Source: Phycisphaeraceae bacterium
GTDB lineage: Bacteria > Planctomycetota > Phycisphaerae > Phycisphaerales > SM1A02
Assembly (NCBI GenBank): GCA_019636755.1
Contig: JAHBWZ010000001.1
Coordinates: forward strand, 496,001-560,000
Direction of reading: 5' to 3'
DNA length: 64,000 bases
A program made the position numbers and the translations under genes. Each line of letters begins with the position of its first letter. The first letter of the stretch is position 1. Below the pieces are notes generated by a model. It saw only the letters and a list, made by a program, of their open reading frames with translations, searched no databases and was not told the DNA's origin. Shown here piece after piece: positions 41,477 to 63,938 of the stretch.

Positions 41477-41490
41477 GTCCAGTGCGAATC

Positions 41491-41521
41491 CCCGAGAGGA
41501 ACCCTCTTCGGAACGTTGGGA
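41491..41521. repeat. Dispersed island repeat, copy a
   Basis: CCCCGAGAGGAACCCTCTTC continues as GGAACGTTGGG, nearly identical to copy b at 55767-55797. It lies 90 bp past the stop of the NucS-like gene. Confidence 0.7.
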
Positions 41522-42736: not shown

Positions 42737-45822
<3,086 letters not shown>

Positions 45823-45826
<4 letters not shown>

Positions 45827-46581
45827 GCGATCAATCCCTCCGGCGCTGCGGCTGCCTCGGGAGCCGGAGCTTCTGCCGTCGTGTCCGCGGCCACCTCCTT
45901 TGCGTCCTCGTCCGCCTCAAACCCTGCTAACCGATCGCGGTACGCCTCGATATCCACGTTGAACAGCACTTCGCTGGGGCGGTACTCCAAGCCGAAGATG
46001 CGCACCGGCTCGTGAGCCTCGTCGATCAGCGCGTTGAACTCGGGGTTGTCGTCGTACTCCAAGATCGGCGCCGGTGGCCCGGCGATAGCCTGCCGGTGCG
46101 CGCGATAGATGAAGCCGACGATCGCATCGGCGGCCTGCGCGACAAGCAGGGCCTGCATGGCTTCGAGCACCGGCGCCGGCCCATCCTTGCCGTGCGAGGC
46201 GAATCCACAATCGTTGCGCAACTCGCAGACACCGTGCATCGCCGTACTCAGTCCTCCGAGCGTCTTCCCGAGACTCTTGCGGATGTCGCCTTCCACAACG
46301 GCGCCGGGTGGCAAAAATGGCAGCAACCGCGTCACTGCCTTGAACAGCTTTGGCAACTCATCGGTGTCGGTGAATGTCGTCTGGCGCTCAGTCAGAATCG
46401 TCTTGCACGCGCTCTCGACAAGCGTCTTGGCGAGGTCGAAGGTCAGCCCGGCGTTCTCCGCGACGGCCTGCTCGATTGCCTTCACCTGTTCCTCGATGTG
46501 CAACATCCCGCCCGCGATGGCTTCGCGTGAGCCATGCATGGTGAAGGCGACGGGCACGATCGCACGCGCGAGAGGAGTCAC
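45823..46581 (-). CDS. Abortive-infection C-terminal-like protein (Abi-C family)
   Basis: The 252-residue protein starts with GTG directly after the hsdS stop. It shows the Abi-C pattern: a helical region ([23 protein letters not shown]), [16 protein letters not shown], then [29 protein letters not shown]. Members of this family occur in phage-defence loci. Its position between and overlapping hsdS and hsdR suggests that it belongs to the restriction operon. The C-terminal 80 residues are an Ala/Glu-rich tail. An ATG at 46539 is an alternative start. Confidence 0.75.
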
Positions 46582-47930
46582 TCAGACTGCCCTCCCGACG
46601 ATCTGCTCCGCATCCGCGATGCGGAGTTCGCCGGAGATCAGTTTCGGCAGCAGCGTGTCGCGCAGGCCACCGAGCGCCCTCGACTGACCCATCGCTGTAC
46701 TCATCCGAGCAAACAGCGGCTCTACCACTGTCCCGAAGCAGGCGGCAAGGCTGTCGTCGGAGCCGGGAGGGACTGCGATCAGGAAATGCGCAAGGCTGCT
46801 TGCGGACACACGTTGGCGACCGCTCGATCCGGTCATCGCCTGGATGGCGAATGTGCGGAACCCTTCGCTCCGAGCCAGCAAATAGGCGAAGTGCGCCGGA
46901 AGCGGTGGACGGGGGCGAAGCACGATGTACTCGGTGGAGCCCCAAGCGACCTCGCCGTCGGCAAGGAAGTCCACAAACGCGGTCTTGCCGTTCTCGAGGC
47001 ACGGCGTGATTCGAGCGACAAGCGTGTCGCCGTTCATGAATCGCATCCCCGACCCCGCCTCGCGCTGCACCCACTGCGCGGGCGCGTGCCCTTGCGTCGG
47101 CATGTTTGACATGTCCAGGTATGGGGCCGTCTCGCCACGCCTCAGCGTTCGAGTGGGGTTGACCTCGAACGCCTCGGGCAACGGAGCCACGCTCCACCCC
47201 TCCGGCACCTCGCCCATCGGCGAGCCCACGAGACGGTCGGGGAACAGCGCGGCGATCTCATCCGGCAGGCCGGTCGGCTCGCCCGCGGCCTTGCGGCGGA
47301 CGGGGTCGAAGTCCACGAACCACGACCTGAACACCGCCCGCGCGAGTCCCTCCAGCACGCGCACTACTTTGCGGTTGGTCTCGATGCGATCATCGAGTGT
47401 GCCTAGCACACTGGCGATTGCACGCTGCTCTCGAAGGGGCGGAAGTCGAACAGGAAACCTAGGGAACTCAAGCAATGGAATGCGGTCAACTGTGCTCCCC
47501 GTGGTTGTGTGCTTTCGGATGACCTCCTGGAACTCAGCGCCCAGGAACGTGAACAAGAAGTATCGGGGATCGATTTTGGAGCGGTCCGGCCGTGCCAATG
47601 CCATCCTTCGACCGAGACAGCATCGCAGGCCGTGCGGAATGAGAGCAGCAGTCCCCAACCTGGTTTCGTAGGAAAACACGAGATCGCCTTCGCGGGGGAC
47701 CACCCGTCGAGTCCATCGAGGCCAATCAGCCTCGGAAAGGTGTTCGGTCGTGCTGAGATCGAGGCGTCCATTCACAATGTTCCAGATCCCGAGGAACACC
47801 GGCCCGGAGCTGGTCTTCGCAGGGGTGGCGTGGGGGCCGTCAAAAACGCCCTCGCACACGTCAGCGACGGTGACCGTCGGCCACCGTGAACTGGCTTGGG
47901 GCTCTCCCGAACTTCTCGTTGCGCCCGGGT

Positions 47931-47934
<4 letters not shown>
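46582..47934 (-). CDS. hsdS: Type I restriction specificity subunit S
   Basis: The 450-residue protein has two target recognition halves ([20 protein letters not shown] and [20 protein letters not shown]) separated by conserved helical spacers ([26 protein letters not shown] and the C-terminal helix ending [10 protein letters not shown]). It determines the DNA target for methylation and cleavage. It overlaps hsdM by ATGA. The recognition sequence cannot be predicted from sequence alone. Confidence 0.93.
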
Positions 47935-49513
<1,579 letters not shown>

Positions 49514-49517
<4 letters not shown>

Positions 49518-49807
49518 GCCTTCGTTCCTCGCTTGGTGGTCTTCGCGTCGTCGGTCAGCCATCGGTCGATCGTCTCGCGGTGGAACCGCCAATGCCTGCC
49601 CACCTTGTGGCCAGGGACCGTGCCCTCCTGCGCCAGCTTGTAGAGCGTCCGCTTCGGGAGCTTCAGGTAGATCGCCAGTTCGTCGATCGTAAAGACCGCG
49701 TCGGTCGGCACGGCAGCCCGGCCCGCCTTCTCCGTCGAGGGAGCGGGCTTGGCTTTCCGAGGGACTGGCTGACGGCGGGTCGCGGCCATGTGGGCATGAA
49801 AGCCCAT
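49514..49807 (-). CDS. Excisionase-type HTH DNA-binding protein heading the restriction operon
   Basis: The 97-residue protein has an HTH_17/excisionase domain ([24 protein letters not shown], then [13 protein letters not shown]). The N-terminal 30 residues are basic and probably disordered. An ATG at 49789 (MAATRR) is an alternative start. A 7-bp-armed palindrome lies immediately upstream, consistent with autoregulation. It is translationally coupled to hsdM, so it is more likely a transcription regulator of the operon than an excisionase. Confidence 0.85.
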
Positions 49808-51081: not shown

Positions 51082-51956
51082 GTCGTGTACCAGCCCTTCG
51101 TGTTGATCGTCTTGCCGCACTCGGCTGAGGCCTTCTCGATCGCCTGCTCGAACGGGATGTGTGGGAACGCGGTGAGCCCACTCTCAGGCGTGCAGTTCAG
51201 GACGGCGAAGCGGTGCTCCATGAAGTGATCGCGCAGCGCCTCGAAGCGACGGTTCAGCGAGTCGTAGAGCACGTTGTTGTGGCGGACGGCCTCGGCGCTT
51301 CTCGCCTCGTCGAAGGCGTAGCCCTGATCGGGCGTCATCCTGAAGTCCGCACCAACGAGGTAGACCGTGCGAAAGCCGAGGTACTGCAGGAGCCGCAGCG
51401 CCGCGAGCATGACCGATCGCTTGACCCAACTTGAAACTGGGATGCCGAGGGAGTCCTTCGTCGCGGTGTGGTTGCCCCAGCAGACGACGTCCTCGTCGAG
51501 GAAGCGGCGATGGTCGAAGTGCTCACTGCGCCGGTAGAGCAGGACCGACGGGATCTGCTTCACGCGGAAGGCGCTCGCAGCCATCGCACCGTTGGGCTTC
51601 TGGATGCGGAGCCGCTCGTTCCACGCCGACATCGGCACGAACTTCAGAATGCCCGGGTCCTTCCAGCCGGTGTCGATGAAGCGGCCCGCGGAGTCGACGC
51701 AGGTCCAGAGGTTCGGGCGATGGACCGCCCACGAGTTGTTCACGCCCATAGTCACGACGCCGCGCCGCGTGAGCTGCGCGAGATCGTGCGTCGCCAGCGA
51801 CGGTCCCGAGAGCACCAGGAACGCGTGCCGACCACGGTAGAAGTCGCACAGCGAGACGCTGTCGAAGTCGGTCGTGTAGAGCCGAAGCCCGTTTCGCGCG
51901 GGCCGGCGCACGTGGAGCCCCGGCCTGCAGCGCCGCGATGTCGGCGTCATGGTCAC
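51078..51956 (-). CDS. MAF/DUF115-like protein
   Basis: The 292-residue protein has FLVLSGPSLATHDLAQL with the GPSL motif, GVNNSWAVHRPNLWTCVD and FRTVYLVGADFRMTPDQGYAF, which resemble the MptE/MAF-like (DUF115) fold. Its stop overlaps the ATG of the BIL gene by ATGA, so it is probably co-expressed with it. MAF-like proteins are linked to glycosylation of surface proteins; a role in modifying the Ser-rich BIL protein is possible but not shown. No signal peptide is seen. Confidence 0.5.
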   Translation of the reverse strand: MTMTPTSRRCRPGLHVRRPARNGLRLYTTDFDSVSLCDFYRGRHAFLVLSGPSLATHDLAQLTRRGVVTMGVNNSWAVHRPNLWTCVDSAGRFIDTGWKDPGILKFVPMSAWNERLRIQKPNGAMAASAFRVKQIPSVLLYRRSEHFDHRRFLDEDVVCWGNHTATKDSLGIPVSSWVKRSVMLAALRLLQYLGFRTVYLVGADFRMTPDQGYAFDEARSAEAVRHNNVLYDSLNRRFEALRDHFMEHRFAVLNCTPESGLTAFPHIPFEQAIEKASAECGKTINTKGWYTT

Positions 51957-53125: not shown

Positions 53126-53407
53126 TCAGGATTCCTCCGCAACTATGAACGGGACACTGAGGCGTGTCAAGACTGCATCCACGACCTCCCGGGAAATCAT
53201 CCGTGCCCGACGGTCCCATCCCTCGGCGTTGGCCTGCACGCGCCACGCCATCCGCCACACCAGGTACGCCTTGTGATACGAGCGCGTCTCCTCGCCGAAG
53301 ACCTCGGCGGAGCGCCGCCGCAGTTCGGTCACCGTCATGCGCTCGAGCTCGCTCATCAGCCGTCCGACGTTCAACGCCACGCATCGCTCCTTTCCGGCTT
53401 CGGACAT
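53126..53407 (-). CDS. DUF2924 protein, truncated copy
   Basis: The N-terminal 56 residues (MSELERMTVTELRRRSAEVFGEE...YLVWRMAWRVQAN) match DUF2924 and are nearly identical to the copy at 57518-58090. After RVQAN the sequence changes to an unrelated 33-residue tail. Full-length DUF2924 proteins are encoded next to large serine recombinases. GGAGA lies before the ATG. Probably a broken duplicate. Confidence 0.7.
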   Translation of the reverse strand: MSEAGKERCVALNVGRLMSELERMTVTELRRRSAEVFGEETRSYHKAYLVWRMAWRVQANAEGWDRRARMISREVVDAVLTRLSVPFIVAEES

Positions 53408-53790
53408 CGCTGCATCTCCGAGCCGTGGACCCCAACACTCGGGTGAGGAGGATCACGGCGTGAGGTGGCGCAGAGATCAAGGCATGTCGGCGCGGACTCG
53501 GCGAGATTCCCTGGCTCGTCAAAGTCGCCAGCGATGCGGCCACGCAGGCGGAGAGTGCCGCGAGCCAGGATGCTCGCGACCTCGTCGCGGCGCTCGGCGG
53601 GCGACATGGCTTCGGGATCGTCGTGATCGAGGCGCAGCGACATCGCGAACTCCTTGCGGGAGCTGTGAACGCGCGACCATCGCGGGGGGCGTGGCCGGTC
53701 GATCGTGCTCGGGGTTCAGGAGCGGCTGTTCACCGCAGCCGCCTGCTGGATACCTACGCGACGGCGGGGCGGAGTTGCGCGAACTCCCCC
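53226..53790. repeat. Duplicated recombinase-associated module, copy A
   Basis: About 565 bp is largely identical to 57909-58470 in the same orientation; it spans the 5' part of DUF2924, the small ORF and its upstream region (shared GGATACCTACGCGACGG). The two copies bracket trkH and the abiE operon. Confidence 0.85.
53371..53643 (-). CDS. Small recombinase-module protein, copy A (run-on)
   Basis: The 90-residue frame starts MSLRLDHDDPEAMSPAERRDE, matching the 68-residue protein at 58109-58315 over about 60 residues. The stop used in the other copy is lost, so it runs on and overlaps the DUF2924 start. Small proteins with this MSLRLxHDDP start accompany DUF2924 genes in recombinase modules. 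Function unknown. Confidence 0.55.
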   Translation of the reverse strand: MSLRLDHDDPEAMSPAERRDEVASILARGTLRLRGRIAGDFDEPGNLAESAPTCLDLCATSRRDPPHPSVGVHGSEMQRCPKPERSDAWR

Positions 53791-54126
53791 TGCGTGGCTC
53801 TGATCCACTATGGCCACCAGCCACCACGCCAAGCGAGCTCCGCCGCTACAATGGACTCGTTGTGCAGCCGAGTCTCCGCCTGGTGGCGGGGATCGGGGGA
53901 CCCATCGCCGCGCCACCGCGCGCGGCAGGGGCGAAGGAGTTCCTGGACTCCAGGCCACTTTCAAGGCCCAGCCCGTCAGCTCACCCCGCAGGCATGTGAA
54001 AGCGCACGGCGCCGAGCTTCCGAGAGGCCGACATCCATCGGCTCCTCGGCCTCCCCGTCGCTGCGATGGCAAGGACCCCGGCTCACCCAGATGCGCCGCC
54101 CGGGTTCGATCCACAGGGTTGGGAGC
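53791..54126. other. Non-coding interval before the TrkH gene
   Basis: No gene or repeat is recognised. A T-loop-like GGTTCGATCC near 54110 lacks a paired stem and is not a tRNA. The TrkH promoter should lie here. Confidence 0.4.
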
Positions 54127-55584
54127 ATGTCCACTCCAGGGCAGTCGGCAGACGAATCGCAGAACATCGCAGAAGACCTGAACACTCCCAGGCCTCGCCT
54201 GCGAGGCTGGCGGCGGATGCTGCTCGCCCTGGGTCGGGTGGCGAGCTGGGCGGTGCTCGCGCCGCCGCGCGCAGGCCTTCGGGCATGGTCCAGGCTGAAT
54301 CCCGTTCAGCAGTTCGTCGCCGGATTCGGTCTCTACGCCGTGATCGGCACGATCCTGCTCTGCATGCCGTTCGCGCAGCAGCAGCACGCGGGAGTGATCG
54401 ACAACGCCTTCAATGCGGTCAGTGCAATCTCCACGACCGGCCTGACGACGATCAGCGTCTCGGACAGCTATACGTTCTTTGGCGAGCTCGTTCTCCTCGT
54501 CCTGTTTCAGGTCGGTGGCGTCGGGTTCATGACGCTGGCGTCGATCCTGCTGCTTGCGCGCGGGCGTTCCCTGAACAAGGCGCATCTCGACGTCCTGAAG
54601 GCCGGCTTCTCGGTTCCGCACTATTTCGTGATGCAGCACTTCATCGTGCAGGTCGTGATCTTCACGACCGCATGCGAGACCATCGGCGCGTTCGTGCTGT
54701 GGTGGCGCTTCGCCGCTGCCGGTGTGGACGAACCCCTGTGGTCGGCGGTGTTTCACTCCGTCTCGGCATTCGCGACCGCCGGATTCAGCCTCAACAGATC
54801 CAGCATGGAGGTGTTCTCGTCGGACTGGGTCGTGAACCTGGTGATCGGTACGCTGTCGTACCTCGGGGCCATCGGCTTCATCGTCGTGCAGGACATCTGG
54901 TACTCGCTGAAGCACCGCGAGAAGATGATCACCTTCACGTCGAAGGTGATCCTCGTCATGACTGCGGGGGTGTTCGCCGGCGGCACGACGCTGCTGTTCT
55001 TCTGCGAACCGTCCGTGCGCGGCCTCCCGGTGAACGAACGCCTTCTCGCCAGCGGATTCCAGATCATGACGGCTTCGAGCACCGCCGGGTTCAACACGAT
55101 TCCGATCGGCAGTATGTCCTCGGCAGGTCTCGTCGTGGTCATGATCGCGATGCTGATCGGTGCTTCGCCGAGCGGAACCGGTGGAGGCATCAAGACCACG
55201 AGCGTCTCGGCAATCTTCGGAAACCTGCTGAGCGTGCTCAGGCGCCGGGAGAAGGTGATCTGGCTTGGACGTGAGATTCCGATGGTCCGCGTTCTCTACG
55301 CGTTCGCGGCCAGCTCGATCTACCTGATCGGACTGTGCGCAGGCGTGCTCGTTCTCTGCCTCACGGAGTCGCAGGAGTTCCTGCCGATCGTGTTCGAGTC
55401 CGCGAGCGCCATCGGCACGGTAGGACTCTCCATGGGTATCACAGGCGAGCTTTCCATTCCTGGAAAGCTCGCGATCATCGCGCTGATGTTCGCAGGTCGC
55501 TGCGGACCGATCACGATCGGCCTCGCGTTGTTGCGACCCGAGGACCAGCCTCCGACCGCATGGGGTGATGATCTCGCCGTGTAG
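54127..55584 (+). CDS. TrkH/KtrB-family potassium transporter
   Basis: The 485-residue membrane protein has four selectivity-filter loops: SAISTTGLTT, SAFATAGFS, TASSTAGFNT and ASAIGTVGLSMG, each with the conserved glycine. It mediates K+ (or Na+-driven K+) uptake. The first 50 residues are hydrophilic and the start at 54127 is the first ATG before them; the longer upstream frame is non-coding. No TrkA/KtrA regulatory gene is adjacent, which is unusual; the regulatory subunit may be elsewhere. It lies inside the island between the two module copies. Confidence 0.92.
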   Translation: MSTPGQSADESQNIAEDLNTPRPRLRGWRRMLLALGRVASWAVLAPPRAGLRAWSRLNPVQQFVAGFGLYAVIGTILLCMPFAQQQHAGVIDNAFNAVSAISTTGLTTISVSDSYTFFGELVLLVLFQVGGVGFMTLASILLLARGRSLNKAHLDVLKAGFSVPHYFVMQHFIVQVVIFTTACETIGAFVLWWRFAAAGVDEPLWSAVFHSVSAFATAGFSLNRSSMEVFSSDWVVNLVIGTLSYLGAIGFIVVQDIWYSLKHREKMITFTSKVILVMTAGVFAGGTTLLFFCEPSVRGLPVNERLLASGFQIMTASSTAGFNTIPIGSMSSAGLVVVMIAMLIGASPSGTGGGIKTTSVSAIFGNLLSVLRRREKVIWLGREIPMVRVLYAFAASSIYLIGLCAGVLVLCLTESQEFLPIVFESASAIGTVGLSMGITGELSIPGKLAIIALMFAGRCGPITIGLALLRPEDQPPTAWGDDLAV

Positions 55585-55638
55585 GTCGCCGCGCTGCCCC
55601 TGATGGCGAACTGAATCGTTCGCGACCGCAAAAGGCCG

Positions 55639-55669
55639 CCGAGAGCGACCCTGCTGTTGAACTCACGCG
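55639..55669. repeat. Dispersed island repeat, copy f (short)
   Basis: CCGAGAGCGACCCTGCTGTT plus GAACTCACGCG matches the start of copy d (59045-59075) at 29 of 31 positions. It lies 55 bp past the TrkH stop. Confidence 0.65.
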
Positions 55670-55720
55670 CAACTGCGGGAGATTGACGCGATCAGCCCGA
55701 TGTCACGGCTCACGCCCGGA

Positions 55721-55767
55721 CCGTAAACCAAACAACCGCCGCAAGTTCGCGGCGGTCGTGAAAGCTC
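55721..55767 (-). terminator. Hairpin element, copy 1, at the end of abiE operon
   Basis: CCGCCGC...GCGGCGG forms a strong stem, followed on the minus strand by TTGTTTGGTTT. The 45-bp element is about 93% identical to 62137-62182. It lies 40 bp past the AbiEii stop. Confidence 0.6.
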
Positions 55768-55797
55768 CCCGAGAGCAACCCTCTTCAGAACGTTGGC
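55767..55797. repeat. Dispersed island repeat, copy b
   Basis: CCCCGAGAGCAACCCTCTTC continues into AGAACGTTGG, nearly identical to copy a at 41491. It abuts the hairpin and lies 10 bp from the AbiEii stop. Confidence 0.7.
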
Positions 55798-55806
55798 TCC
55801 GAGGCG

Positions 55807-56718
55807 TCAGGTCCACGGCCCGCCGGGAGGCCAGGTCCGGTGGAGCATCTGTCCCTCGGCGACCGACTCGATCGCCGGCCGAAGGAACTCCGCGACCCAG
55901 CCGCCCACCTCGGCGAACGTCTCGGGCGCATCGGTGGCCCCGAGTCGCCGGCGGAACGCGGTCCACTGCACGGCCTTCTGCGGATCGGCGAGCGCGTCGG
56001 GCGTGAGTGCGTCGGGCGAGGCGGCCACGGCTGTCCCGCGCTGCTCGCATGTCGCGCGGATCGCGCTCGACAGCACCGGCCCATCGAACGCTCGCGAGCG
56101 GGAGAGCGCCCAGATGTCGAAGAAGTCCTTCATGCGGCTGTTGAGCGTGCCGCGCTGAAGCATCACATGAAGCTTCTCGGCGATGGTGGTCTCCGGGGTG
56201 TAGCCGATGAGGCGAGCACCCGGCGAGCCGAGGACCGACGGGTACTCGATCTCGACCGGCTCGGGCGTCACACGGTCGCCGAAACCGATGTCGATCTGCA
56301 TCGGGATGCGGGCGTTGCCAAGCCGCCCGGCGAACGTGGCGCGGACGCCGTCGTACTCGGCCTCCTCCGCGATGCGGCCGACCTCGACCGTCGCCGGATC
56401 GAACTCGAGCCCGTCGGGATCGACCGTTGCGATGCAGACTTCCCGCACGATCACCGCGATCCGTTCCGGGTCATTGGCCGTGCGCCCCAGCAGGTCGATG
56501 TCACGCGTCGGCCGTATCGCCGCGATCTCCCACACGCGGAGCATCAGCGCTCCCTTCAGGATGAAACGGCCGCGGTGCGGCGATGCCGCGAGTCTGCACA
56601 GGAACCGCTCGAGCGCGTAGTGCTGGAGCAGGTCGTTGAACCGCTCGCCGGACTTGTCCGCGGCGTTCTTGAGTTGCTGGTGGACGGAGGCGGCAGTGTT
56701 GCGCGGTTGCTGCTTCAC
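55807..56718 (-). CDS. AbiEii-type nucleotidyltransferase toxin
   Basis: The 303-residue protein starts at GTG 56718, overlapping the antitoxin stop (GTGA). It has the DUF1814/AbiEii core: FILKGALMLRVW, the catalytic TRDIDLLG, and IAEKLHVMLQRG...SRMKDFFDIWAL. AbiEii is the toxin of type IV toxin-antitoxin systems and can cause abortive infection. The active-site aspartates are present, so it appears intact. Confidence 0.92.
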   Translation of the reverse strand: MKQQPRNTAASVHQQLKNAADKSGERFNDLLQHYALERFLCRLAASPHRGRFILKGALMLRVWEIAAIRPTRDIDLLGRTANDPERIAVIVREVCIATVDPDGLEFDPATVEVGRIAEEAEYDGVRATFAGRLGNARIPMQIDIGFGDRVTPEPVEIEYPSVLGSPGARLIGYTPETTIAEKLHVMLQRGTLNSRMKDFFDIWALSRSRAFDGPVLSSAIRATCEQRGTAVAASPDALTPDALADPQKAVQWTAFRRRLGATDAPETFAEVGGWVAEFLRPAIESVAEGQMLHRTWPPGGPWT

Positions 56719-57332
56719 GAGAACGTCGCCTCCAGGTACGGCCGCATGACCGCATCGACGCGATCGATCTTGGCGTAGCGCATCAGCGCAGGAAGATCCT
56801 GCTTGCGGCGCGATCGGTAGAGACGCAGCGCCTCCAGCGCGATGTCCAGCCCGATCCGGTTGCGGAACTTGAAGCAGTCGGCGATCGTCTTCTCGGCGTT
56901 GAAGAGACGGATCGTGACGCCGTCGGCGATGCGAGACTCGACTCCTTCGGTCATCGATTCGCCGCTGAAGCGATGTACGCAGACTGGCGGGTGCCTGAAG
57001 CGCGGGCCTGAGCCGCCCGGAGGCAGCGCGATGTCCACGGTCCGAGGGATCTGGGTCGTGAGCTCGTGGACCGCCAGCGCCGACGCGAGGCAGATCACCG
57101 CTCGCGGCACCCGCGCCGCAACCGCGAGCAGGTCCGGGTCCACCGACCACTCCGTTTCCGCCAGGCGATAGACACCCCGACTGACGGCCTCGATCACGCC
57201 GGTGTCGCGCAGCTCGTACAGCGTGCGGGGATGAATGCCCGCCGCGATGGCCTCCCGCGTCCGAAGGACACCGCCGCGGCGTCTGAAGACGTCGACGGCT
57301 CGATTGGCGGCCTTGGGGGGCGGGGTCGGCAT
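56715..57332 (-). CDS. AbiEi-type antitoxin
   Basis: The 205-residue protein has a winged-helix N-terminus (VFRRRGGVLRTREAIAAGIHPRTLYELRDTG, then VIEAVSRGVYRLAE) and the AbiEi C-terminal domain (IPRTVDIALPPG, NAEKTIADCFKFRNRIG). AbiEi antagonises the toxin and represses its own promoter in characterised systems. The AT-rich sequence directly upstream holds candidate operator repeats. Confidence 0.92.
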   Translation of the reverse strand: MPTPPPKAANRAVDVFRRRGGVLRTREAIAAGIHPRTLYELRDTGVIEAVSRGVYRLAETEWSVDPDLLAVAARVPRAVICLASALAVHELTTQIPRTVDIALPPGGSGPRFRHPPVCVHRFSGESMTEGVESRIADGVTIRLFNAEKTIADCFKFRNRIGLDIALEALRLYRSRRKQDLPALMRYAKIDRVDAVMRPYLEATFS

Positions 57333-57380: not shown

Positions 57381-57521
57381 GTTTCTATCCACGATCGGGC
57401 GACGCCTCCTCGAGAGGAACCCCTCCTGCTCGAGGCCTTCCTCGCTTGACTTGCGGGTGTAGACCGCGCAGCGGACGGTGGCGGCGGAGGTGCGGGCCGG
57501 GGCCGAGCGGGATCGGCTCAT
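57363..57521 (-). pseudogene. N-terminal fragment of a large serine recombinase
   Basis: The ATG at 57521 overlaps the DUF2924 stop (ATGA), the usual arrangement. The frame reads VRCAVYTRKSSEEGLEQE, containing the Y-x-R-x-S catalytic motif, and then departs from the family (where FNSLDAQREAC is expected) into about 20 unrelated residues before a stop at 57363. The break falls on a CGAGAGGAACCC core shared with the dispersed island repeats. Confidence 0.8.
57407..57428. repeat. Dispersed-repeat core at the recombinase break, copy c
   Basis: TCCTCGAGAGGAACCCCTCC contains the CGAGAGGAACCC core of copies a and e. It coincides with the truncation of the recombinase reading frame. Confidence 0.5.
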
Positions 57522-58090
57522 CGGGTGGCCTCCTCGGACCGCGGCTTCTCAAGACCGATGAAGAGGGAGCCGCTCCAATGCGCCCCGGTCACCGCCTGCG
57601 CGACCGCGGAGAGGGAGCGGTAGATCGTGCCTTCGCAGTCGAAGCCCTTCGGCAGCACCCGCACGAGGATCGTCCGCCCACGGTACTCGCGGGTGAGCAG
57701 AGCACCGGGCATCGGGAGCCGACCGTCGCTGGCGACCGGGATCGCCGTGGTCGCGCTCGCGGGTGGCTGCGACGCGAGGATCGCCGGGCCGGGCGGCCGT
57801 GCGGGGCCGGGTGCCCGCATCCGCAGATCGGCGTCGTCGGCGATCTCCATCGCCCGCTCGCGGAGCCGCCGTGCCCGCTCCGCGAGGTCGCCCTCCCCCT
57901 CCGAGAGTGCGTTGGCCTGCACGCGCCACGCGATCCGCCGGACGAGGTACGCCTTGTGATACGAGCGCGTCTCCTCGCCGAAGACCTCGGCGGAGCGCCG
58001 CCGCAGTTCGGTCACCGTCATGCGCTCGAGCTCGCTCATTGACCGTCCAACGTTCAACGCCACGCATCGCTCCTTTCTGGCTTCGGGCAT
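57518..58090 (-). CDS. DUF2924 protein, full length
   Basis: The 190-residue protein has the DUF2924 N-terminus (VTELRRRSAEVFGEETRSYHKAYLVRRIAWRVQ), a variable linker (PPGPAILASQPPA) and the C-terminal half LLTREYRGRTILVRVLPKGFDCEGTIYRSLSAVAQAVTG. DUF2924 genes sit immediately before large serine recombinase genes in many mobile elements and are thought to assist recombination. Here the downstream recombinase is truncated, but the start-stop overlap is preserved. Confidence 0.88.
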   Translation of the reverse strand: MPEARKERCVALNVGRSMSELERMTVTELRRRSAEVFGEETRSYHKAYLVRRIAWRVQANALSEGEGDLAERARRLRERAMEIADDADLRMRAPGPARPPGPAILASQPPASATTAIPVASDGRLPMPGALLTREYRGRTILVRVLPKGFDCEGTIYRSLSAVAQAVTGAHWSGSLFIGLEKPRSEEATR

Positions 58091-58470
58091 CGCTGCATCT
58101 CCGAGCCGTTAACCAGTGGGACGATCAGGGCGTGAGGTAGCGCAGAGATCAAGGCATGTCGGCGCGGACTCGTGCAGAATCTCTGACTCGTCGAAGTCGC
58201 CAACGATGCGGCCGTGCAGTCGGAGGATGCCGCGAGCGAAGATGCTCGCCACCGCGTCGCGGCGCTCTTCGGGCGACATCGCGTCGGGGTCGTCGTGATT
58301 GAGGCGCAGCGACATCGCGGACTCCTTGCGGAAGCGTTGAACGCGCGACCATCCGTGGTCGGTCGATCGTGCTCTGGTTCAGGTGCGGCTGTTAACCGCG
58401 GCCCTACTGGATACCTACGCGACGGAGGCGCCGAGTTGCGCGCCTCCGTAGCGGTCCAACAGATCCGCCA
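57909..58470. repeat. Duplicated recombinase-associated module, copy B
   Basis: This is the partner of 53226-53790, direct orientation, about 4.7 kb apart. Copy B keeps the complete small ORF and the intact 5' half of DUF2924. Confidence 0.85.
58109..58315 (-). CDS. Small recombinase-module protein, copy B
   Basis: The 68-residue protein begins MSLRLNHDDPDAMSPEERRDA and is followed 18 bp later by DUF2924. It has no known domain. The near-identical reading in copy A (53371-53643) supports it as a real gene. It may be an accessory factor of the recombinase module. Confidence 0.65.
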   Translation of the reverse strand: MSLRLNHDDPDAMSPEERRDAVASIFARGILRLHGRIVGDFDESEILHESAPTCLDLCATSRPDRPTG

Positions 58471-58483
58471 CTAGAGTTTCGCC

Positions 58484-59023
58484 ATGATCTGGGAGTCACA
58501 TCCGTGGCGAGTCGATCTCACGAAGCGTGCCCAATGGCTGCTCGACCGGCAGACGCAGCGGCGCTGGCCTGAGGCCTCATGCGTACGAGTCGAACAGTGC
58601 GTGATGGTGGGCTGCTACTGCGTGAGGAAGCTCATCGAGGCCAAGAAGGTGACCGACCGGGTCGCTCGGCTCCCCCTGAAACTGCGTCGGCATGCATCGA
58701 AGGGCAAGGCCGTGCACTTCATGAACTGGCATCGCTTCGACGAGCTCTATCACCTCGAGCGTTCGACGAAGGAGACACGAACACTCGGGTTCGTCTGCAA
58801 CCAGTTGATTCACAGCTTCGTGTTCGCTCTCTCGTTTGACGAGAAGACCGGCGGGCTGGATGGAGTGTTCTTCTGCTCGGACCGCGACCGGAACAAGCAC
58901 CTCCTCTACCTCGCGGTTACGGACCTCGCAGCTGGGTTTCAGCGGGTTGCCCACGATGACGTAGTTGCGGCTCGGATGACGTGGAACCCGAAGCGGGCCG
59001 ACTACGACTGCTGTCTGGATTGA
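58484..59023 (+). CDS. Hypothetical protein
   Basis: The 179-residue product starts MIWESHPWRVDLTKRAQWLL and contains CVRVEQCVMVGCYCVRKLIE, MNWHRFDELYHLE, and LGFVCNQLIHSFVFALSF, with cysteines and Trp/His that suggest a folded globular protein. No family is recognised. It stands alone between the DUF2924 module and repeat copy d. It has no signal peptide and no clear Shine-Dalgarno sequence. Confidence 0.6.
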   Translation: MIWESHPWRVDLTKRAQWLLDRQTQRRWPEASCVRVEQCVMVGCYCVRKLIEAKKVTDRVARLPLKLRRHASKGKAVHFMNWHRFDELYHLERSTKETRTLGFVCNQLIHSFVFALSFDEKTGGLDGVFFCSDRDRNKHLLYLAVTDLAAGFQRVAHDDVVAARMTWNPKRADYDCCLD

Positions 59024-59042
59024 TCTCTGCCCGGAGAAAGGA

Positions 59043-59189
59043 CCCCGAGAGCAACCCTGCTGTTAAACTCACGCGAGGCGTCAACCAGAGAGCGCGAGAG
59101 ATCGAGAGGGTTGCGCTCGGTGGCCCGAAAGGAACCGTGACGGTTGCGCTCGGACCCCGAGATTCGGCTTCGGAACCGGGAGCGCCGCG
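59043..59189. repeat. Dispersed island repeat, copy d (147 bp)
   Basis: It shares its whole length with copy e at 61910-62056 in the same orientation (landmarks GTCAACCAGAGA, GAGAGGGTTG, CTCGGTGGCCCGA, TGACGGTTGCGCTCG). The pair flanks the antiporter gene. Confidence 0.85.
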
Positions 59190-59256
59190 TCGGGAGAGCA
59201 GACGTCGCCTCGTCCCCGACTCCGGAGATCTGACGCGCGCGGGTCGATGTCGCGCG

Positions 59257-59316
59257 CCCGATCCCGACGGCGACGCCAACGTCGACGGAGACGATCTCGG
59301 GCTCGCGCGCTTCGCG
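59257..59316 (+). pseudogene. Dockerin-like repeat remnant
   Basis: One frame reads PDPDGDANVDGDDLGLARFA, the D-x-D-G-D...DDLxLL pattern of the dockerin-like tails elsewhere in this window. No gene precedes it; it lies just after repeat copy d and before the antiporter 3' end. Confidence 0.45.
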
Positions 59317-59328
59317 AGGGGCCGCCGA

Positions 59329-61836
59329 TCAGCCGACGCCGGCGAGCAGATCATGCAGATCGTCAGGCGACCTCGCCGCGAGGATCTGCTCGGCGGCCTT
59401 CGGGTCGCTCAGCAACCGCGCGATCCGCGCGAGCTGCTGAAGGTGCACGGAGGGCTCGAGGATCAGCGGCGAGAGCAGCACGATCAGGATCCGAGCCGGG
59501 CTCGCCATGCGGCCGAACACCACACCGGACGAGGTCGTCGCGAGGAAGGCCATCGACTGCTGCACATGCGGCGAGCGCGAGTGGATCAGCACAACTCCCG
59601 AGGCGATCTCGATTGGCGCTTCCTCGATCACTCGCATGAGTTCGGTGACGATCAACGCTTGCGTCGTCTCGTGATCACCACACCACGGCTCCAGCAAGCA
59701 CTCAATGATCGCGCGCGGGGAGTCGATCTGAAGTCCGAGGGCAATGCGCTCCGGCCGCAGGAGCATGTGAAGATCGATCGCGCCGATGTTCGTATCGGCC
59801 GCGGCGGCGGTCTCGGTCGATGACCCCTCTGGCGGGTAGACAACGATCATGCTCGTGCGTGCTGTTCGTTTCGCAATCTGCACGGGCAATCGATCGATGC
59901 TCGGTTGCCATGAAATCCGATGCTGGCGCGCTGAGAGCAGCACGAAGAGATCGTCTTCGCGCAATCCCATCTTCAAGGGGTCGAGCCAGTCGCTAATGGA
60001 CGCCACGGGCCGATACTCCGTCGGAACAGAGCCAAGCGTGCGCCGCAGGGTGCGCCTGAGCGGCTCGAGGTCCGCCTCAGCGGCGCAGACGACCAAACCG
60101 AGGCCGGCTCGCGATGCGAGCGTGTGGATCGTTGACATCGCCGCAATGAAGCCGATCTCGCGATCGGCAAAGCGAGGCACGGCGAGAACGATTCGCTTCG
60201 CGGTACTCAGTGGCGCGGTGATGCGACAGACGACGAACTGCTGCGGGCACTGTTCGAGGAGTTGATCGAGCACACTGCCGAAGATGCGGCTCTTCGCCGG
60301 GCTGGCACCGGTCCAGCCCATGACGACCGTGGAGACCCGAATCTCGCGGATCGCGCGGATCACGCCGCCGGCGGCGTTGTTGTCCAGGCGCGTCACCGGC
60401 ACGACCGGCACATTGGCATTCGCGGCATGCATCACCGCCGAGCCGAGCATGCGCTCCGCCACCGCCACCTGCGTCGAGGCGTCATCGTCGTCCTGCACGA
60501 CGGCCAGAGGGTAGAGCGGCTCGTGCGAGTCGCTCTCGTGGACCATGAGCGCGACATCCATGATCGCCTCAGCCGCCTCGGGATTGCGCAGCGGGATGAG
60601 GATTCGCCGCGGCGCCAAGGCGCGGTCCTCAGGCCGGCGCGACTCCGCCAACGCCAGCTCGCGGCCATATCGCTGAGTCGCCCATGGTCCGAGTACGCAC
60701 GTGACCAGGATCATCATGATCGCGCCGTTCAGCACGGCCTCGCCGAAGATACCGATGTCGACGCCGACGACAACAGCCGCAAGCGTCGCTGCGGCTTGGT
60801 TCACGCTCAAGCCGAAAATGACCCGAGTTTCGACCTCCGAGTATCCCAGAATGCGGCTCGTCAGCCATGCCGCCAGGTACTTGGTCACGACCACGGTCAC
60901 GACCATCGCCAGAGAGACCTTCCACGTCTCGGGATCGGTAAGGAGCACCCTTGGGTTCACGAGCATCCCGACCGAGATCATGAACACCGGGATGAAGAAC
61001 CAGTTACCCGCGAACTCGACCCGGCCCATCAGGGCACTCTGCTCCGGGACGAGTCGATTCAGCGCCAATCCACCGAGGAATGCTCCGATGATCGGTTCCA
61101 TCCCGGCCACCGATGCGAGATAGGCGCAGAGATACACCGCTGCGAGCAGGAAGACGAAGTGCGACGTTCCCAGTGCCGGCACAGTGCGAAAGTACCAGCG
61201 CCCGATCCGCGGGAGGATGAGACACATCGCCACGGTGTAGACCGTGATCGACCCGAGGAGGCCGAGCCAGAATCCAGCGTCAAGTTCACCGCGTGCCGAT
61301 CGTGCGACGAGCGCCAGAACCAGCAGCGCCGCAGTGTCGGTGATGATCGTACCGCCGACCGCCGTCGTCACCGCCTGCGCGCGAACGATTCCCAGCCGAC
61401 TTGCGATCGGATAGGAGAGAAGGGTGTGCGAGGCGAACATGCTCGCCAGTAGGATCGAGGCGGCCACGTCGAAGCCGAGCAGAAGGAGAGCCATGACGGT
61501 CCCGACAACCTGTGGCACCAGAAATGTGGCCGCACCGAAGACGAGACTGTGGCTGCGATACCGGCGAAAGCGATGCAGGTCGATCTCCAGACCGGCAATC
61601 ATGAAAATGTAGAGCAGCCCGATCGTTCCCAGCAAACGGATCGACTCCCCCCGCTCGAGGACATTCAAGGCATTTGGGCCGATGATCGCCCCGGCAACGA
61701 TCAGACCGATGACTCCTGGCACGCGCAGCCGCTGCACCAGCATCGGCGCGATCAGAATGACAAGCAGCACGACGGCAAAAACGAGCACGGGATCGTCGAT
61801 TGGCAACGACCACGGGGTGCTCGCGAAGAGAGTCAT
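59329..61836 (-). CDS. CPA2 cation/proton antiporter with USP and PTS EIIA-like domains
   Basis: The 835-residue protein has about 12 membrane helices in the first 390 residues (VPGVIGLIVAGAIIGPNAL, GTIITDTAALLVLALVA, MEPIIGAFLGGLALNRLVP), as in KefB/NhaS-type antiporters. Then come two universal-stress-type regions (RRILIPLRNPEAAEAI, VSTVVMGWTGASPAKSRIFGSVLDQLL, KRIVLAVPRFAD). It ends with a PTS EIIA-2-like domain whose histidine lies in LIHSRSPH. It probably exchanges K+ or Na+ for H+, gated by a nucleotide- or phosphotransfer-sensing tail. It is bracketed by the two 147-bp repeats. Confidence 0.9.
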   Translation of the reverse strand: MTLFASTPWSLPIDDPVLVFAVVLLVILIAPMLVQRLRVPGVIGLIVAGAIIGPNALNVLERGESIRLLGTIGLLYIFMIAGLEIDLHRFRRYRSHSLVFGAATFLVPQVVGTVMALLLLGFDVAASILLASMFASHTLLSYPIASRLGIVRAQAVTTAVGGTIITDTAALLVLALVARSARGELDAGFWLGLLGSITVYTVAMCLILPRIGRWYFRTVPALGTSHFVFLLAAVYLCAYLASVAGMEPIIGAFLGGLALNRLVPEQSALMGRVEFAGNWFFIPVFMISVGMLVNPRVLLTDPETWKVSLAMVVTVVVTKYLAAWLTSRILGYSEVETRVIFGLSVNQAAATLAAVVVGVDIGIFGEAVLNGAIMMILVTCVLGPWATQRYGRELALAESRRPEDRALAPRRILIPLRNPEAAEAIMDVALMVHESDSHEPLYPLAVVQDDDDASTQVAVAERMLGSAVMHAANANVPVVPVTRLDNNAAGGVIRAIREIRVSTVVMGWTGASPAKSRIFGSVLDQLLEQCPQQFVVCRITAPLSTAKRIVLAVPRFADREIGFIAAMSTIHTLASRAGLGLVVCAAEADLEPLRRTLRRTLGSVPTEYRPVASISDWLDPLKMGLREDDLFVLLSARQHRISWQPSIDRLPVQIAKRTARTSMIVVYPPEGSSTETAAAADTNIGAIDLHMLLRPERIALGLQIDSPRAIIECLLEPWCGDHETTQALIVTELMRVIEEAPIEIASGVVLIHSRSPHVQQSMAFLATTSSGVVFGRMASPARILIVLLSPLILEPSVHLQQLARIARLLSDPKAAEQILAARSPDDLHDLLAGVG

Positions 61837-61909
61837 GGGCGACCAGTGTAAATGGCCTGCGGAGCTTTGGCACCGCGAGAGGACGCGCCCGAAGTGGTTG
61901 CTCTCGGCA

Positions 61910-62056
61910 CCCCGAGAGGAACCCTCCCGTTAACCCCATGCGACCCGTCAACCAGAGATCGCGAGAGTTCGAGAGGGTTGGGCTCGGTGGCCCGAGAGGA
62001 ACCATGACGGTTGCGCTCGCACCGCGAGATCGGGCTTCAGAACCGAGAGCGCCGCG
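61910..62056. repeat. Dispersed island repeat, copy e (147 bp)
   Basis: It matches copy d and begins CCCCGAGAGGAACCCTCCCG. A second CCCGAGAGGAACC core occurs inside it near 61991. It lies just upstream of the antiporter start, on the other side from copy d. Confidence 0.85.
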
Positions 62057-62136
62057 GCTCGGGGCAGGTGGTCCGAAACCCGCGACCCGTCAGGGGTTTG
62101 GTCCACTCGGTGCCGGATGCCTCTTGCAGCACGAGC

Positions 62137-62182
62137 CGTAAACCACACGACCGCCGCGAGTTCGCGGCGGTCGTGAAAGCTC
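62137..62182 (-). terminator. Hairpin element, copy 2, at the end of the recombinase gene
   Basis: Arms CACGACCGCCGCGA and TCGCGGCGGTCGTG pair perfectly over 14 bp. On the minus strand the stem is followed by TGGTTTACGG. It lies 15 bp past the recombinase stop and matches 55721-55767. Confidence 0.6.
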
Positions 62183-62196
62183 AAATCCGCCCTGAC

Positions 62197-63531
62197 TCAA
62201 GGCCCACCGGCTGGTTTACTGACGGACGTTGGAAGTGCCGGAAATCGCCCGGAAAACGCATCCAGGAAGCCCTGGGCGAAGGTGACTCGCATCCCCGTGT
62301 TCCGCCGCCGGAACTCGACCGATTCGATGATCCGGGGCAGCAGGCTGCGCCTGGCCGCGGAGTCCAGGCCGCTCCAGATGCCGCGCAGAGCAGCAGGTCC
62401 GCCCTCGAACCCTTGGGGCGATGATTCCGGCAGGGTCGCCCACACCTGCTCATCCTCGGCAAGCAGGTCGCAGATCACCTGCTCGACCTCGTGGGCGGGG
62501 TATTGCACTCCCCGGCATCGGCCTCGGCCGTCCGCCGTCGATCGGCAGCGGTAGTAGCGGTAGCCGATGGTTGCCTGGCCCTTGCGATGCGTCACGGTGT
62601 AGGTGCAGAGGCGCCGCCGACACTCTGGACAGACAATCTTGCCCCGGAGCGGAAAGTCGAGCGGCTGTCGTGAGCGCTGCGCCGGCGGGCGCCGCTGATC
62701 GAGCAGATTCTGCACGCTCCGAAACAGCCCCAACTCCACAATCGCGGCATGGCATCCATCCCGCGCGCGTGCACCATCCGCGAACTTGCCGATGCAGACT
62801 GGATTCCGCAGGAGCGTCAACACCTGCCGGGCAGTCCAGCGGCCTCCGCCGACGTGGTTGCCTGTTCGCTTCGAGCGCCACCGCTTCGTCCGCCAGCCAA
62901 GGTGGTCCACGCATCGGGCGATCTCCGATGGCGTCTGTCCGTTGGCAGCGCGCCTGAACATCGCGCGAACGCGTCGCGCCTCGGTCCTGTTGGGGACCAG
63001 TTGCTTCGTGGCCGGATCGGCGTCGTAGCCGTACGGCGCGGGGCCGGCAAGGCGGCGGCCGTGCTTCTTCAGGTAGGCCCGGGTCTCGGCGATGCGCGAG
63101 ACGATGAGCTCGCGCTCGAAATGCGCGAACGACGCGAGGATGTGGCGCAGCAGCCGGCTCTCCGGTCCGCCGCCCATGTCGGGGATGTTGACGACATGGA
63201 CCCTGACGCCGGCGCGTTCGAACTCCTCGAAGAGGATGGTCGTGTCGCTGAGGGAGCGCGACCAGCGATCGAGCGCGGCGGCAACGACGCAATCGACGGC
63301 CCCGGTCTGAACGCGCTCGCGAAGCCGATTCAACGCGGGCCGATCGAGCGACCTGCCGGAGACTCCTTCGTCGTCGAAGCGCTCACCGATCCACTGGGCC
63401 GATGGGCCGGACTCGCGATGCGCCGCCGCCATGCACAACTCGAACTGCGCGGCGCACGACGAGAGACCATCCTTCGGCTCGTTGGACTGGCGGGTGTAGA
63501 TGGCGAAGGCCACGGGCGGCGGCTCCCGCAA
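62197..63531 (-). CDS. Large serine recombinase
   Basis: The 444-residue protein has the catalytic motif YTRQS (Ser16), DRWSRSL and the resolvase fold (FDDEGVSGRSLDRPALNRL), the recombinase domain (LKKHGRRLAGPAPYGYDAD...RRVRAMFRRAANG) and a zinc ribbon (CPECRRRLC ... YRYYRC). It is shorter than many 500-600-residue relatives but shows no obvious break. It can integrate, excise or invert DNA between att sites. It differs from the truncated recombinase at 57363-57521. A short gap of 17 bp separates it from HepT. Confidence 0.93.
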   Translation of the reverse strand: MREPPPVAFAIYTRQSNEPKDGLSSCAAQFELCMAAAHRESGPSAQWIGERFDDEGVSGRSLDRPALNRLRERVQTGAVDCVVAAALDRWSRSLSDTTILFEEFERAGVRVHVVNIPDMGGGPESRLLRHILASFAHFERELIVSRIAETRAYLKKHGRRLAGPAPYGYDADPATKQLVPNRTEARRVRAMFRRAANGQTPSEIARCVDHLGWRTKRWRSKRTGNHVGGGRWTARQVLTLLRNPVCIGKFADGARARDGCHAAIVELGLFRSVQNLLDQRRPPAQRSRQPLDFPLRGKIVCPECRRRLCTYTVTHRKGQATIGYRYYRCRSTADGRGRCRGVQYPAHEVEQVICDLLAEDEQVWATLPESSPQGFEGGPAALRGIWSGLDSAARRSLLPRIIESVEFRRRNTGMRVTFAQGFLDAFSGRFPALPTSVSKPAGGP

Positions 63532-63548: not shown

Positions 63549-63938
63549 CTATGCGTCCCTGTCGCCCTTCCAGCCGACATCATGCTCCAGCGATGCAATC
63601 AGTGGCGCAAGATGAACGAGCAGGTCGGGGAGATGAACCTTGACCACCTCGTACACCTTGTCGAGCACGACCGTGCCGTACTCGTGGGCGAGCACATGCC
63701 GCATGCCGACGATGAGCGGCCAGGGAATCGATGGCGAGCGGCGCCGCGCCTCGTCCGACACCAGCCGCGCGGCTTCGCCGACGACCTCGATGCAGCGGAT
63801 GACCGCAGCCTGGACGAGATCGTCCTCGAGGAACTCTTCCAGCGTGCGCTCGCCGAGATACTCGCAGGCGCGCTCCGCGTGAATCCGCATGTCCTCGCAC
63901 TTGACGAGGTCGCGCTCGCGCGGATCAAGCGCACTCAT
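63549..63938 (-). CDS. HepT-like ribonuclease toxin of an MNT-HepT module
   Basis: The 129-residue protein is a HEPN/DUF86 protein with the Rx4HxY catalytic motif (Arg80, His85, Tyr87 in GMRHVLAHEYG). These are RNases kept inactive by AMPylation from the MNT partner. Its start overlaps the end of the partner gene by 14 bp. The active-site residues are intact. Confidence 0.92.
   Translation of the reverse strand: MSALDPRERDLVKCEDMRIHAERACEYLGERTLEEFLEDDLVQAAVIRCIEVVGEAARLVSDEARRRSPSIPWPLIVGMRHVLAHEYGTVVLDKVYEVVKVHLPDLLVHLAPLIASLEHDVGWKGDRDA

What the first reader, a model, noticed from the sequence alone, without database searches (positions are those of the whole stretch)
59043..62056. Antiporter gene bracketed by two 147-bp direct repeats: a possible mobile cassette
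Copies at 59043-59189 and 61910-62056 have equal length, the same orientation and high similarity, and enclose one large gene plus a dockerin scrap (period 2867 bp). A repeat-gene-repeat unit like this resembles a cassette or a homologous-recombination duplication product. Related shorter copies occur at other gene ends in the island. Nothing in the feature list explains them.
Basis: partly seen in the sequence, partly recalled or inferred. Interest (0 to 1): 0.75.

Follow-up and report, generated by a model that had tools for sequence, protein, structure and literature searches.

The report
tRNA-anchored attachment-site repeats flank antiporter
The two repeats around the antiporter gene look like worn copies of a roughly 290-base docking site that a family of phage-like mobile elements uses beside one tRNA gene in Phycisphaerales bacteria, so the antiporter is probably stranded cargo in a stack of old insertions and not a free gene cassette.

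Summary
The repeats are real: 59042-59189 and 61909-62056, same orientation, 87% identical. They are not a stand-alone cassette border. Each is the left part of a ~290-bp DNA element matched in 43 of 301 genomes of the host's order (Phycisphaerales, inferred from relatives' labels). Complete copies often lie directly 3' of tRNA-Asn(GTT). The element holds a covarying hairpin that looks like the tRNA's terminator, then a 150-bp block conserved as DNA, not as RNA or protein. Some copies away from an intact tRNA carry a tRNA-Asn 3' fragment starting near the anticodon, as an attP-type site would. A third copy in this genome, 273 bp beyond the window, abuts intact tRNA-Asn. DUF2924, followed in several loci by a large serine recombinase, has the same side and strand in 20 of 21 pairs within 10 kb. 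Phage-type genes follow in some relatives.

Best reading: integrative elements entered at tRNA-Asn repeatedly and stacked up; the antiporter, TrkH, AbiE, HepT/MntA-like and type I R-M genes are cargo. Copy A lacks its core and copy B's core is altered, so the antiporter unit is probably a fossil. The recombinase's role and activity are inferred, not shown.

The parts
59038..59199 (+). Element copy A: left 150-bp block only (model positions 2-163 of 284); hairpin and core missing.
   Evidence: the repeat finder; nhmmer
61908..62182 (+). Element copy B: 150-bp block, spacer and hairpin (model 5-279); core altered after ...AAAGCTC.
59329..61836 (-). Cargo: KefB-like Na+/H+ or K+/H+ antiporter (Na_H_Exchanger + Usp + PTS_EIIA_2), 835 aa
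   Evidence: Pfam; matched in 10 of 301 genomes of the order at E<=1e-60, own included (3 candidates scored per genome)
62197..63531 (-). Large serine recombinase, 444 aa (Resolvase + Recombinase + Zn ribbon), between copy B and the tRNA-side copy C
   Evidence: Pfam; same blast cluster as recombinases, some of them stubs or cut, in nine other loci
63549..63938 (-). HepT-like toxin; its partner (NTP_transf_2, MntA-like) ends inside the window near 63925 and starts beyond the window end
   Evidence: Pfam
57518..58090 (-). DUF2924 gene, 190 aa, the recurrent partner of the recombinase in relatives
   Evidence: Pfam
57423..57539 (-). Stub of the serine recombinase that follows DUF2924 in relatives (first 39 residues, 92% identical to the L079 recombinase)
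   Evidence: tblastn
58484..59023 (+). 179-aa ORF between copy A and DUF2924; no Pfam family
55807..57150 (-). AbiEii toxin ORF (cargo); AbiEi antitoxin at 56715-57332
   Evidence: Pfam; PADLOC
55632..55771 (+). Element remnant (w55): model 2-39 and 180-283, the middle deleted; ends in ..AGCTCCCCGAGAGCAACCCT
53623..55584 (+). TrkH K+ transporter ORF next to w55; c-di-AMP riboswitch at 53856-54009 (+), so the true start probably lies downstream of it
   Evidence: Pfam; Rfam
53150..53374 (-). DUF2924 gene fragment (second copy)
   Evidence: tblastn; repeat D2
42737..49592 (-). Type I restriction-modification genes HsdR, HsdS, HsdM (cargo)
   Evidence: Pfam; PADLOC (HsdR)
41489..41520 (+). 32-bp remnant identical to the right end of the C15b copy; possible far end of the array

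Best explanation
The 147-bp repeats are decayed copies of one arm of an attachment site. In the complete form, reading in the tRNA direction, the site is: tRNA-Asn 3' half from the anticodon loop, the tRNA's terminator hairpin, a spacer, then a 150-bp block with regularly spaced motifs. A family of phage-like integrative elements recombines at the tRNA-Asn anticodon region and restores the tRNA from its own 3' half and terminator. It places cargo between the arm and its DUF2924 + large serine recombinase genes. Repeated insertion at the same tRNA, followed by deletion of recombinase genes, left a stack in this genome: tRNA-Asn, copy C, MntA-like/HepT + recombinase, copy B, antiporter, copy A, DUF2924 + AbiE, w55, TrkH, DUF2924 fragment and so on. 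The antiporter is stranded cargo between two such arms, a CIME-like remnant. Shown: element, tRNA anchoring, tRNA 3' fragments, geometry, gene neighbourhood. Inferred: the recombinase as the integrase, the crossover point, the order of events, former mobility.
For: 43 of 301 order genomes match the element at E<=1e-6 (union, counted; 2 candidates scored per genome; some matches only 40-70 bp). It abuts intact tRNA-Asn in 12 of 24 named-record loci and a partial tRNA-Asn in 1, in 9 of 33 other loci, and in the own genome, on the tRNA's 3' side each time. tRNA-Asn fragments starting at position 24-30 lie beside copies without an intact tRNA: L081 E 2e-7, L102 7e-7, L068 1.5e-4, L069 0.08 weak. 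Hairpin, 17 sequences: 7 of 11 pairs with compensatory changes; 150-bp block, 24 sequences: 0 of 32 pairs, no frame open in all. In the five tRNA-abutting copies read the anticodon GTTAAC and the motif after the hairpin are exactly 76 bp apart. Element-DUF2924 pairs within 10 kb: 20 of 21 on the same side and strand; 36 of 43 element-bearing genomes have DUF2924 against 94 of 258 others, Fisher p 7e-9, not corrected for phylogeny. No tyrosine-integrase hit on own contig C1 or G017 contig C17. L119 has tRNA-Asn, 325 bp, DUF2924, recombinase at the prfA site. Phage-type primase, sigma and terminase genes occur further along.
Against: Large serine integrases normally use ~50-bp sites and rarely tRNA genes (recalled; in M. 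abscessus the tRNA-overlapping attB sites listed are of tyrosine integrases, PMC10654092 passages), so the recombinase assignment is unusual. 15 of 26 loci had no DUF2924 cluster member; tblastn adds only fragments in two of them, L071 and L077. Seven of 43 element genomes have no DUF2924, and 94 genomes have DUF2924 without a recognised element. The intact tRNA-Asn of G028 has a diverged element match (E 5e-6) but no DUF2924 hit within ~9.9 kb; one search lists one ~15 kb away. No island was closed at both ends, so no att pair was matched. Many f2 copies have a non-tRNA right side. Tyrosine integrases lie 3-12 kb from some f2 copies (G167, G184, G248).
Confidence: 0.74

Rival explanations
1. 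The element is an ordinary chromosomal 3' flank of tRNA-Asn (terminator plus a conserved regulatory or RNA element), and the extra copies come from segmental duplication within genomes.
For: The hairpin is a covarying terminator-like structure directly after tRNA-Asn. The copies of the own genome do not separate clearly from those of family relatives (weak support).
Against: 21 of 24 judgeable tRNA-Asn loci of the family lack the recognised element, although rpmE/prfA-region matches lie on the 5' side in 22 of 29 relatives. The 150-bp block shows no compensatory pairs and no frame open in all copies. Copies in G028 lie megabases from the tRNA. DUF2924 is linked in fixed orientation.
Confidence: 0.1
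2. A tyrosine integrase, acting in trans or lost from the islands, is the true integrase; the serine recombinase and DUF2924 are linked genes with another role such as excision or inversion.
For: tRNA anticodon-loop targets and long arms with repeated motifs are typical of tyrosine integrases (recalled). Each of the 12 relatives searched and the own genome have PF00589 genes; in G167, G184 and G248 one lies 3-12 kb from a copy.
Against: No PF00589 hit on own contig C1 (734 kb) or G017 contig C17 (210 kb). DUF2924 and serine recombinase are the recurrent neighbours. L119 shows only DUF2924 + recombinase after the tRNA in the 1.5 kb read.
Confidence: 0.22
3. The antiporter was placed between A and B by homologous recombination or deletion between dispersed copies, and was never itself a mobile unit.
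For: A is truncated on the antiporter side and B's core is altered. Recombinase stubs and DUF2924 fragments show deletions in the array.
Against: The cargo position next to the left edge of B matches the place of other cargo beside the element in relatives. This rival is partly a sub-case of the main reading.
Confidence: 0.4
4. Gene-cassette array of an integron, or a transposon with the repeats as its ends.
For: Gene followed by repeat, same polarity, several genes.
Against: No PF00589 hit on the contig. The element is tied to tRNA-Asn. The repeats are direct and the antiporter is the only large ORF between A and B; overlapping small ORFs were not searched.
Confidence: 0.03

Closest known systems
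tRNA-targeting genomic islands / prophages (attP carries the tRNA 3' end)
   Same: Element supplies the tRNA 3' part; 5' side (rpmE, prfA) conserved, 3' side variable; cargo includes defence and transport genes
   Different: Linked recombinase is of the serine type with a DUF2924 partner; ~290 bp of the site are conserved across families
CIME / tandem accretion of ICEs and IMEs at one site (PMC5704250, passages seen)
   Same: Stacked elements at one tRNA, older ones lacking integrase genes but keeping att-like ends
   Different: Phage-type genes in the relatives read (conjugation genes were not searched for); cores here are damaged
Large serine integrases of phages (phiC31, Bxb1, phage WO; names recalled)
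   Same: Resolvase + Recombinase + Zn ribbon; L035's is PHROG 95 integrase; in a Wolbachia phage-like region a recombinase follows a DUF2924 gene (PMC10299305, one passage)
   Different: Site is tRNA-Asn and the conserved stretch is far longer than the ~50 bp that those enzymes need (recalled)
Tycheposons and similar tRNA-anchored cargo elements
   Same: tRNA-anchored, variable cargo (recalled; only a search listing seen)
   Different: They use tyrosine recombinases (recalled); none was found on own contig C1

Membership tests
tRNA-targeting integrative element | Element end abuts intact tRNA and supplies its 3' part | tested here: met
   intact tRNA-Asn abutting; 3' fragments beside some copies elsewhere
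tRNA-targeting integrative element | Relatives with the target tRNA but without the element | tested here: met
   21 of 24 judgeable tRNA-Asn loci (the best-scoring 30, six dropped for short flank) lack the recognised element; one of the 21 (L119) has DUF2924 + recombinase, and L117 has an AbiEi-like hit, so not all are truly empty
tRNA-targeting integrative element | Direct repeat of the tRNA end at the far boundary | tested here: inconclusive
   no significant tRNA-Asn piece in the window; no island closed at both ends
tRNA-targeting integrative element | Integrase gene next to the att site | tested here: inconclusive
   DUF2924 on the same side and strand in 20 of 21 pairs, recombinase after it in several loci; 7 of 43 element genomes lack DUF2924; activity not testable
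CIME (cis-mobilizable element) | No own integrase between the att sites | tested here: met
   the antiporter is the only large ORF between A and B
CIME (cis-mobilizable element) | Intact attL and attR | tested here: not met
   A lacks hairpin and core; B's core altered
Integron cassette array | IntI-type tyrosine recombinase beside the array | tested here: not met
   no PF00589 hit on own contig C1; no IntI-specific model was run
Integron cassette array | attC fold with R'/R'' boxes | not tested
   looked at by eye only
Serine-integrase phage | Phage packaging and replication genes in the same island | tested here: inconclusive
   in relatives only: primase and sigma in L144 (G017); terminase pair in L143 (G019); island ends not mapped, none seen in the window
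Composite transposon | Transposase and inverted or IS ends with target duplication | tested here: not met
   direct repeats, antiporter the only large ORF between them; target duplication not examined

The most novel reading that the evidence does not exclude
A new integration system: a large serine recombinase with a DUF2924 (RAMA-type DNA-binding) partner integrates phage-like elements into the tRNA-Asn anticodon loop. It uses a lambda-like complex attachment arm of ~290 bp with several GTTNAC-like sites and 80-bp-spaced repeats, and a cargo slot between that arm and the integrase genes that is refilled with defence and ion-transport genes.
Probability: 0.35. Interest if true: 0.75.

Novelty: new variant of a known kind. 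Interest (0 to 1): 0.56.

Why it matters
It turns an unexplained repeat pair into a marker, usable by sequence search, for a family of integrative elements across an order of barely cultured Planctomycetota. It points to a slot where defence and transport genes collect. If the serine recombinase really uses this long arm, it would be a complex attachment site for an enzyme class known for simple ones, possibly read by DUF2924, whose role here is unknown. The claim is directly testable by reads, closed genomes and a two-plasmid assay.

Tried and rejected
Integron reading: rejected; no PF00589 hit on the contig and the element is tied to tRNA-Asn. RNA or riboswitch reading: no Rfam match on the repeats in L006, which holds A, B, C and w55; single-strand folds only mildly better than shuffles (z -1.3 and -2.1 on the minus strand, -0.5 and -1.6 on the plus strand); no covariation in the 150-bp block. 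Protein reading: no frame open in all 24 copies, the best being open in 16; clusters 0 and 2 are spurious ORFs over the element. Antiporter as the regular cargo of the element: nine relatives have no element in flanks of up to ~1.5 kb. Tree of copies: own copies neither one group nor clearly several, low support. Papers: no paper in the library held all four terms tRNA-Asn, integrase, genomic island, Planctomycetes; three held DUF2924 with recombinase (passages seen of two); passages of PMC12884075 and the listings showed no description of this element. That is no proof that it is unpublished.

Limits: searches scored only 2 candidates per genome, only 3. The 301 genomes are drawn evenly from the order and are not independent; several of the 21 pairs come from the same genome. 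Six of 30 tRNA-Asn loci had under 200 bp of 3' flank and were dropped, giving 24; the 30 are the best-scoring. In one search copies L056, L065, L066 and L067 were left out of the alignment; L060, L061, L062, L064, L042 and A were left out of the profile; L060, L061, L062 and L064 were left out of the tree.
Full report
Observation. The two repeats exist as described: 59042-59189 and 61909-62056, same orientation, 87% identical, 2867 bp apart, E 2.5e-46. One 835-aa antiporter gene lies between them. The own genome holds five copies of the 150-bp block: A and B in the window, C just beyond its end (C1:560273-560424), and two on contig C15.

The repeat is part of a longer element. Aligning the copies with their flanks shows that the 147-bp repeat is the left part of a ~290-bp unit. 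After the 150-bp block come a spacer, then a hairpin (the 54-nt repeat at 55714 and 62129), then a core AACTCCCCGA. A profile of 28 copies, 284 positions long, finds B nearly complete (positions 5-279), A truncated (2-163), C nearly complete (6-282), and a remnant at 55632-55771 lacking the middle. The element is matched at E<=1e-6 in 43 of 301 genomes of the order; some of these matches are only 40-70 bp long. A scan of named genomes found 24 stretches, 20 of them in records named as planctomycete or Phycisphaerales-type MAGs; four carry other labels (Burkholderiales, Cyanobacteria, Chloroflexi, Deltaproteobacteria). That the window's own order is Phycisphaerales is inferred from these labels. 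Four virus-collection contigs also hold it.

Anchoring at tRNA-Asn. In the own genome copy C touches the 3' end of tRNA-Asn(GTT), with overlap of a few bases (L006:12281-12556 and 12551-12622). The same holds in 12 of 24 named-record loci, with a partial tRNA in one more, and in 9 of 33 other loci. In each of these the element is on the tRNA's 3' side. Beside some copies without an intact tRNA, fragments of tRNA-Asn beginning at position 24-30, near the anticodon, remain: L081, L102 and L068, and weakly L069. In the single-contig genome G028, two element copies lie at 0.78 and 1.58 Mb while the intact tRNA-Asn is at 3.2 Mb. This is the anatomy of an attachment site that carries the 3' part of its target tRNA.

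Sites with and without the element. Of 30 tRNA-Asn loci of the family (the best-scoring), 24 have at least 300 bp of 3' flank; 3 carry the element (own; G173 and G028 with weak matches) and 21 do not. Proteins matching the own rpmE and/or prfA region (identified by Pfam) lie on the 5' side in 22 of 29 relatives. The 3' side varies: an AbiEi-like hit in L117, an HsdM-like hit in L135, and, in one of the 21, L119, DUF2924 with a serine recombinase 325 bp after the tRNA, where the profile does not recognise the element.

What kind of sequence it is. The hairpin after the tRNA covaries: 7 of 11 pairs show compensatory changes in 17 sequences, as expected of a terminator. The 150-bp block does not: 0 of 32 predicted pairs in 24 sequences, and no reading frame is open in all of them, although many columns are invariant. 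Motif spacing is rigid (nine copies read). In five tRNA-abutting copies and in L081 the anticodon GTTAAC and the GGTTNACGG after the hairpin are 76 bp apart; in L071 the distance is 112. The next GGTTGAC follows 190-192 bp later in eight copies and 211 in L078. A GGTT[GC]CTCTC motif recurs 80-81 bp apart in eight of nine copies; L081 has none. I read this as an array of protein-binding sites; no binding was tested.

Linked genes. Near the element, relatives repeatedly carry a DUF2924 gene (11 of 26 loci examined), a large serine recombinase directly after it or its remains (cluster in 10 loci), and a ~140-aa protein (6 loci). tblastn adds DUF2924 fragments in L071 and L077. By coordinates, 20 of 21 element-DUF2924 pairs within 10 kb have the same side and strand; the exception pairs copy C15b with the DUF2924 that belongs to C15a. 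36 of 43 element-bearing genomes have DUF2924 against 94 of 258 without the element (Fisher p 7e-9, not corrected for relatedness). The L035 recombinase is PHROG 95, integrase; further along, other relatives have a primase and sigma factor (L144) and a terminase pair (L143). DUF2924 is described as partly matched by the RAMA DNA-binding domain (PMC11342252, one passage). In a Wolbachia phage-like region a recombinase follows a DUF2924 gene (PMC10299305, one passage). No PF00589 hit lies on own contig C1 or on G017 contig C17, but in G167, G184 and G248 one lies 3-12 kb from a copy.

Cargo slot. Between the element and DUF2924, different loci carry different genes: a SIR2-TPR protein of 1476 aa (L078), an AAA_13 protein and a PD-(D/E)XK protein (L085), nothing large in L079. 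In the window the comparable places hold the 179-aa ORF (beside A) and TrkH with its c-di-AMP riboswitch (beside w55). Reading from the tRNA leftwards the array is: C, MntA-like + HepT + recombinase, B, antiporter, A, ORF179 + DUF2924 + recombinase stub + AbiE, w55, TrkH, DUF2924 fragment, a stretch shared with C15, type I R-M genes, and a 32-bp remnant at 41489.

Mechanism, with status of each step. (1) The element is the conserved arm of an attachment site at tRNA-Asn: shown by anatomy. (2) Crossover lies in the anticodon region: inferred from where tRNA fragments begin. (3) The DUF2924-linked serine recombinase is the integrase: inferred from linkage; unusual, because tRNA targets belong mostly to tyrosine integrases (recalled; M. 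abscessus example in passages of PMC10654092). (4) Repeated insertion at the same tRNA built the stack and deletions removed recombinase genes: inferred from stubs and fragments. (5) The antiporter unit is a remnant: A lacks the hairpin and core and B's core is altered. Tandem accretion and CIMEs are known for ICEs and IMEs (passages of PMC5704250); this looks like their counterpart in phage-like elements.

Verdict. The wider finding, an order-wide tRNA-Asn attachment element tied to DUF2924 and a serine recombinase, is the interesting part. Against it: no island closed at both ends, seven element genomes without DUF2924, 94 genomes with DUF2924 but no recognised element, the G028 tRNA locus without DUF2924 within ~9.9 kb (one is listed ~15 kb away), many f2 copies whose right side is not a tRNA, and no functional data.

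Noticed in passing
53856-54009 (+): c-di-AMP riboswitch (54 bits, gathering 38) at the start of the TrkH K+ transporter gene, inside the island: transporter cargo that seems to carry its own second-messenger switch.
   Followed up: partly
L054 531-602 (+): A tRNA called Ser(gct) sits at the element where tRNA-Asn sits elsewhere; by eye it looks like tRNA-Asn with a one-base anticodon change.
   Followed up: no
L115, L116, L125, L132, L133, L136 3' flanks of tRNA-Asn: In tRNA-Asn loci where the element is weak or absent, a GTTNACAG-type motif still follows the terminator-like hairpin (seen by eye), similar to the GGTTTACGG of the element.
   Followed up: no
53226-53781, 57909-58442, L007 9692-10712: DUF2924 region repeated three times in the genome; in L007 and at 57423 the following recombinase is cut short near the same place and joined to other sequence.
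   Followed up: partly
51017-51723 and L007 10730-11421; 50117-50678 and L007 11685-12223: A stretch with ORFs (no Pfam hit for two of them) is shared between the C1 and C15 islands near DUF2924.
   Followed up: no
L007 7754-8397 and 15870-16525: 650-bp repeat on C15 holding an element copy and the end of a gene; an IS630-like ORF (by eye) ends at 7746 beside one of the two.
   Followed up: no
L070 7678-15184, L072 10846-17103, L068 14556-19286: In some relatives long heavy-metal-efflux-like (RND-type, by eye) operons lie within 20 kb of the element.
   Followed up: no
50620-50754: Five degenerate 30-bp direct repeats, probably coding repeats.
   Followed up: no
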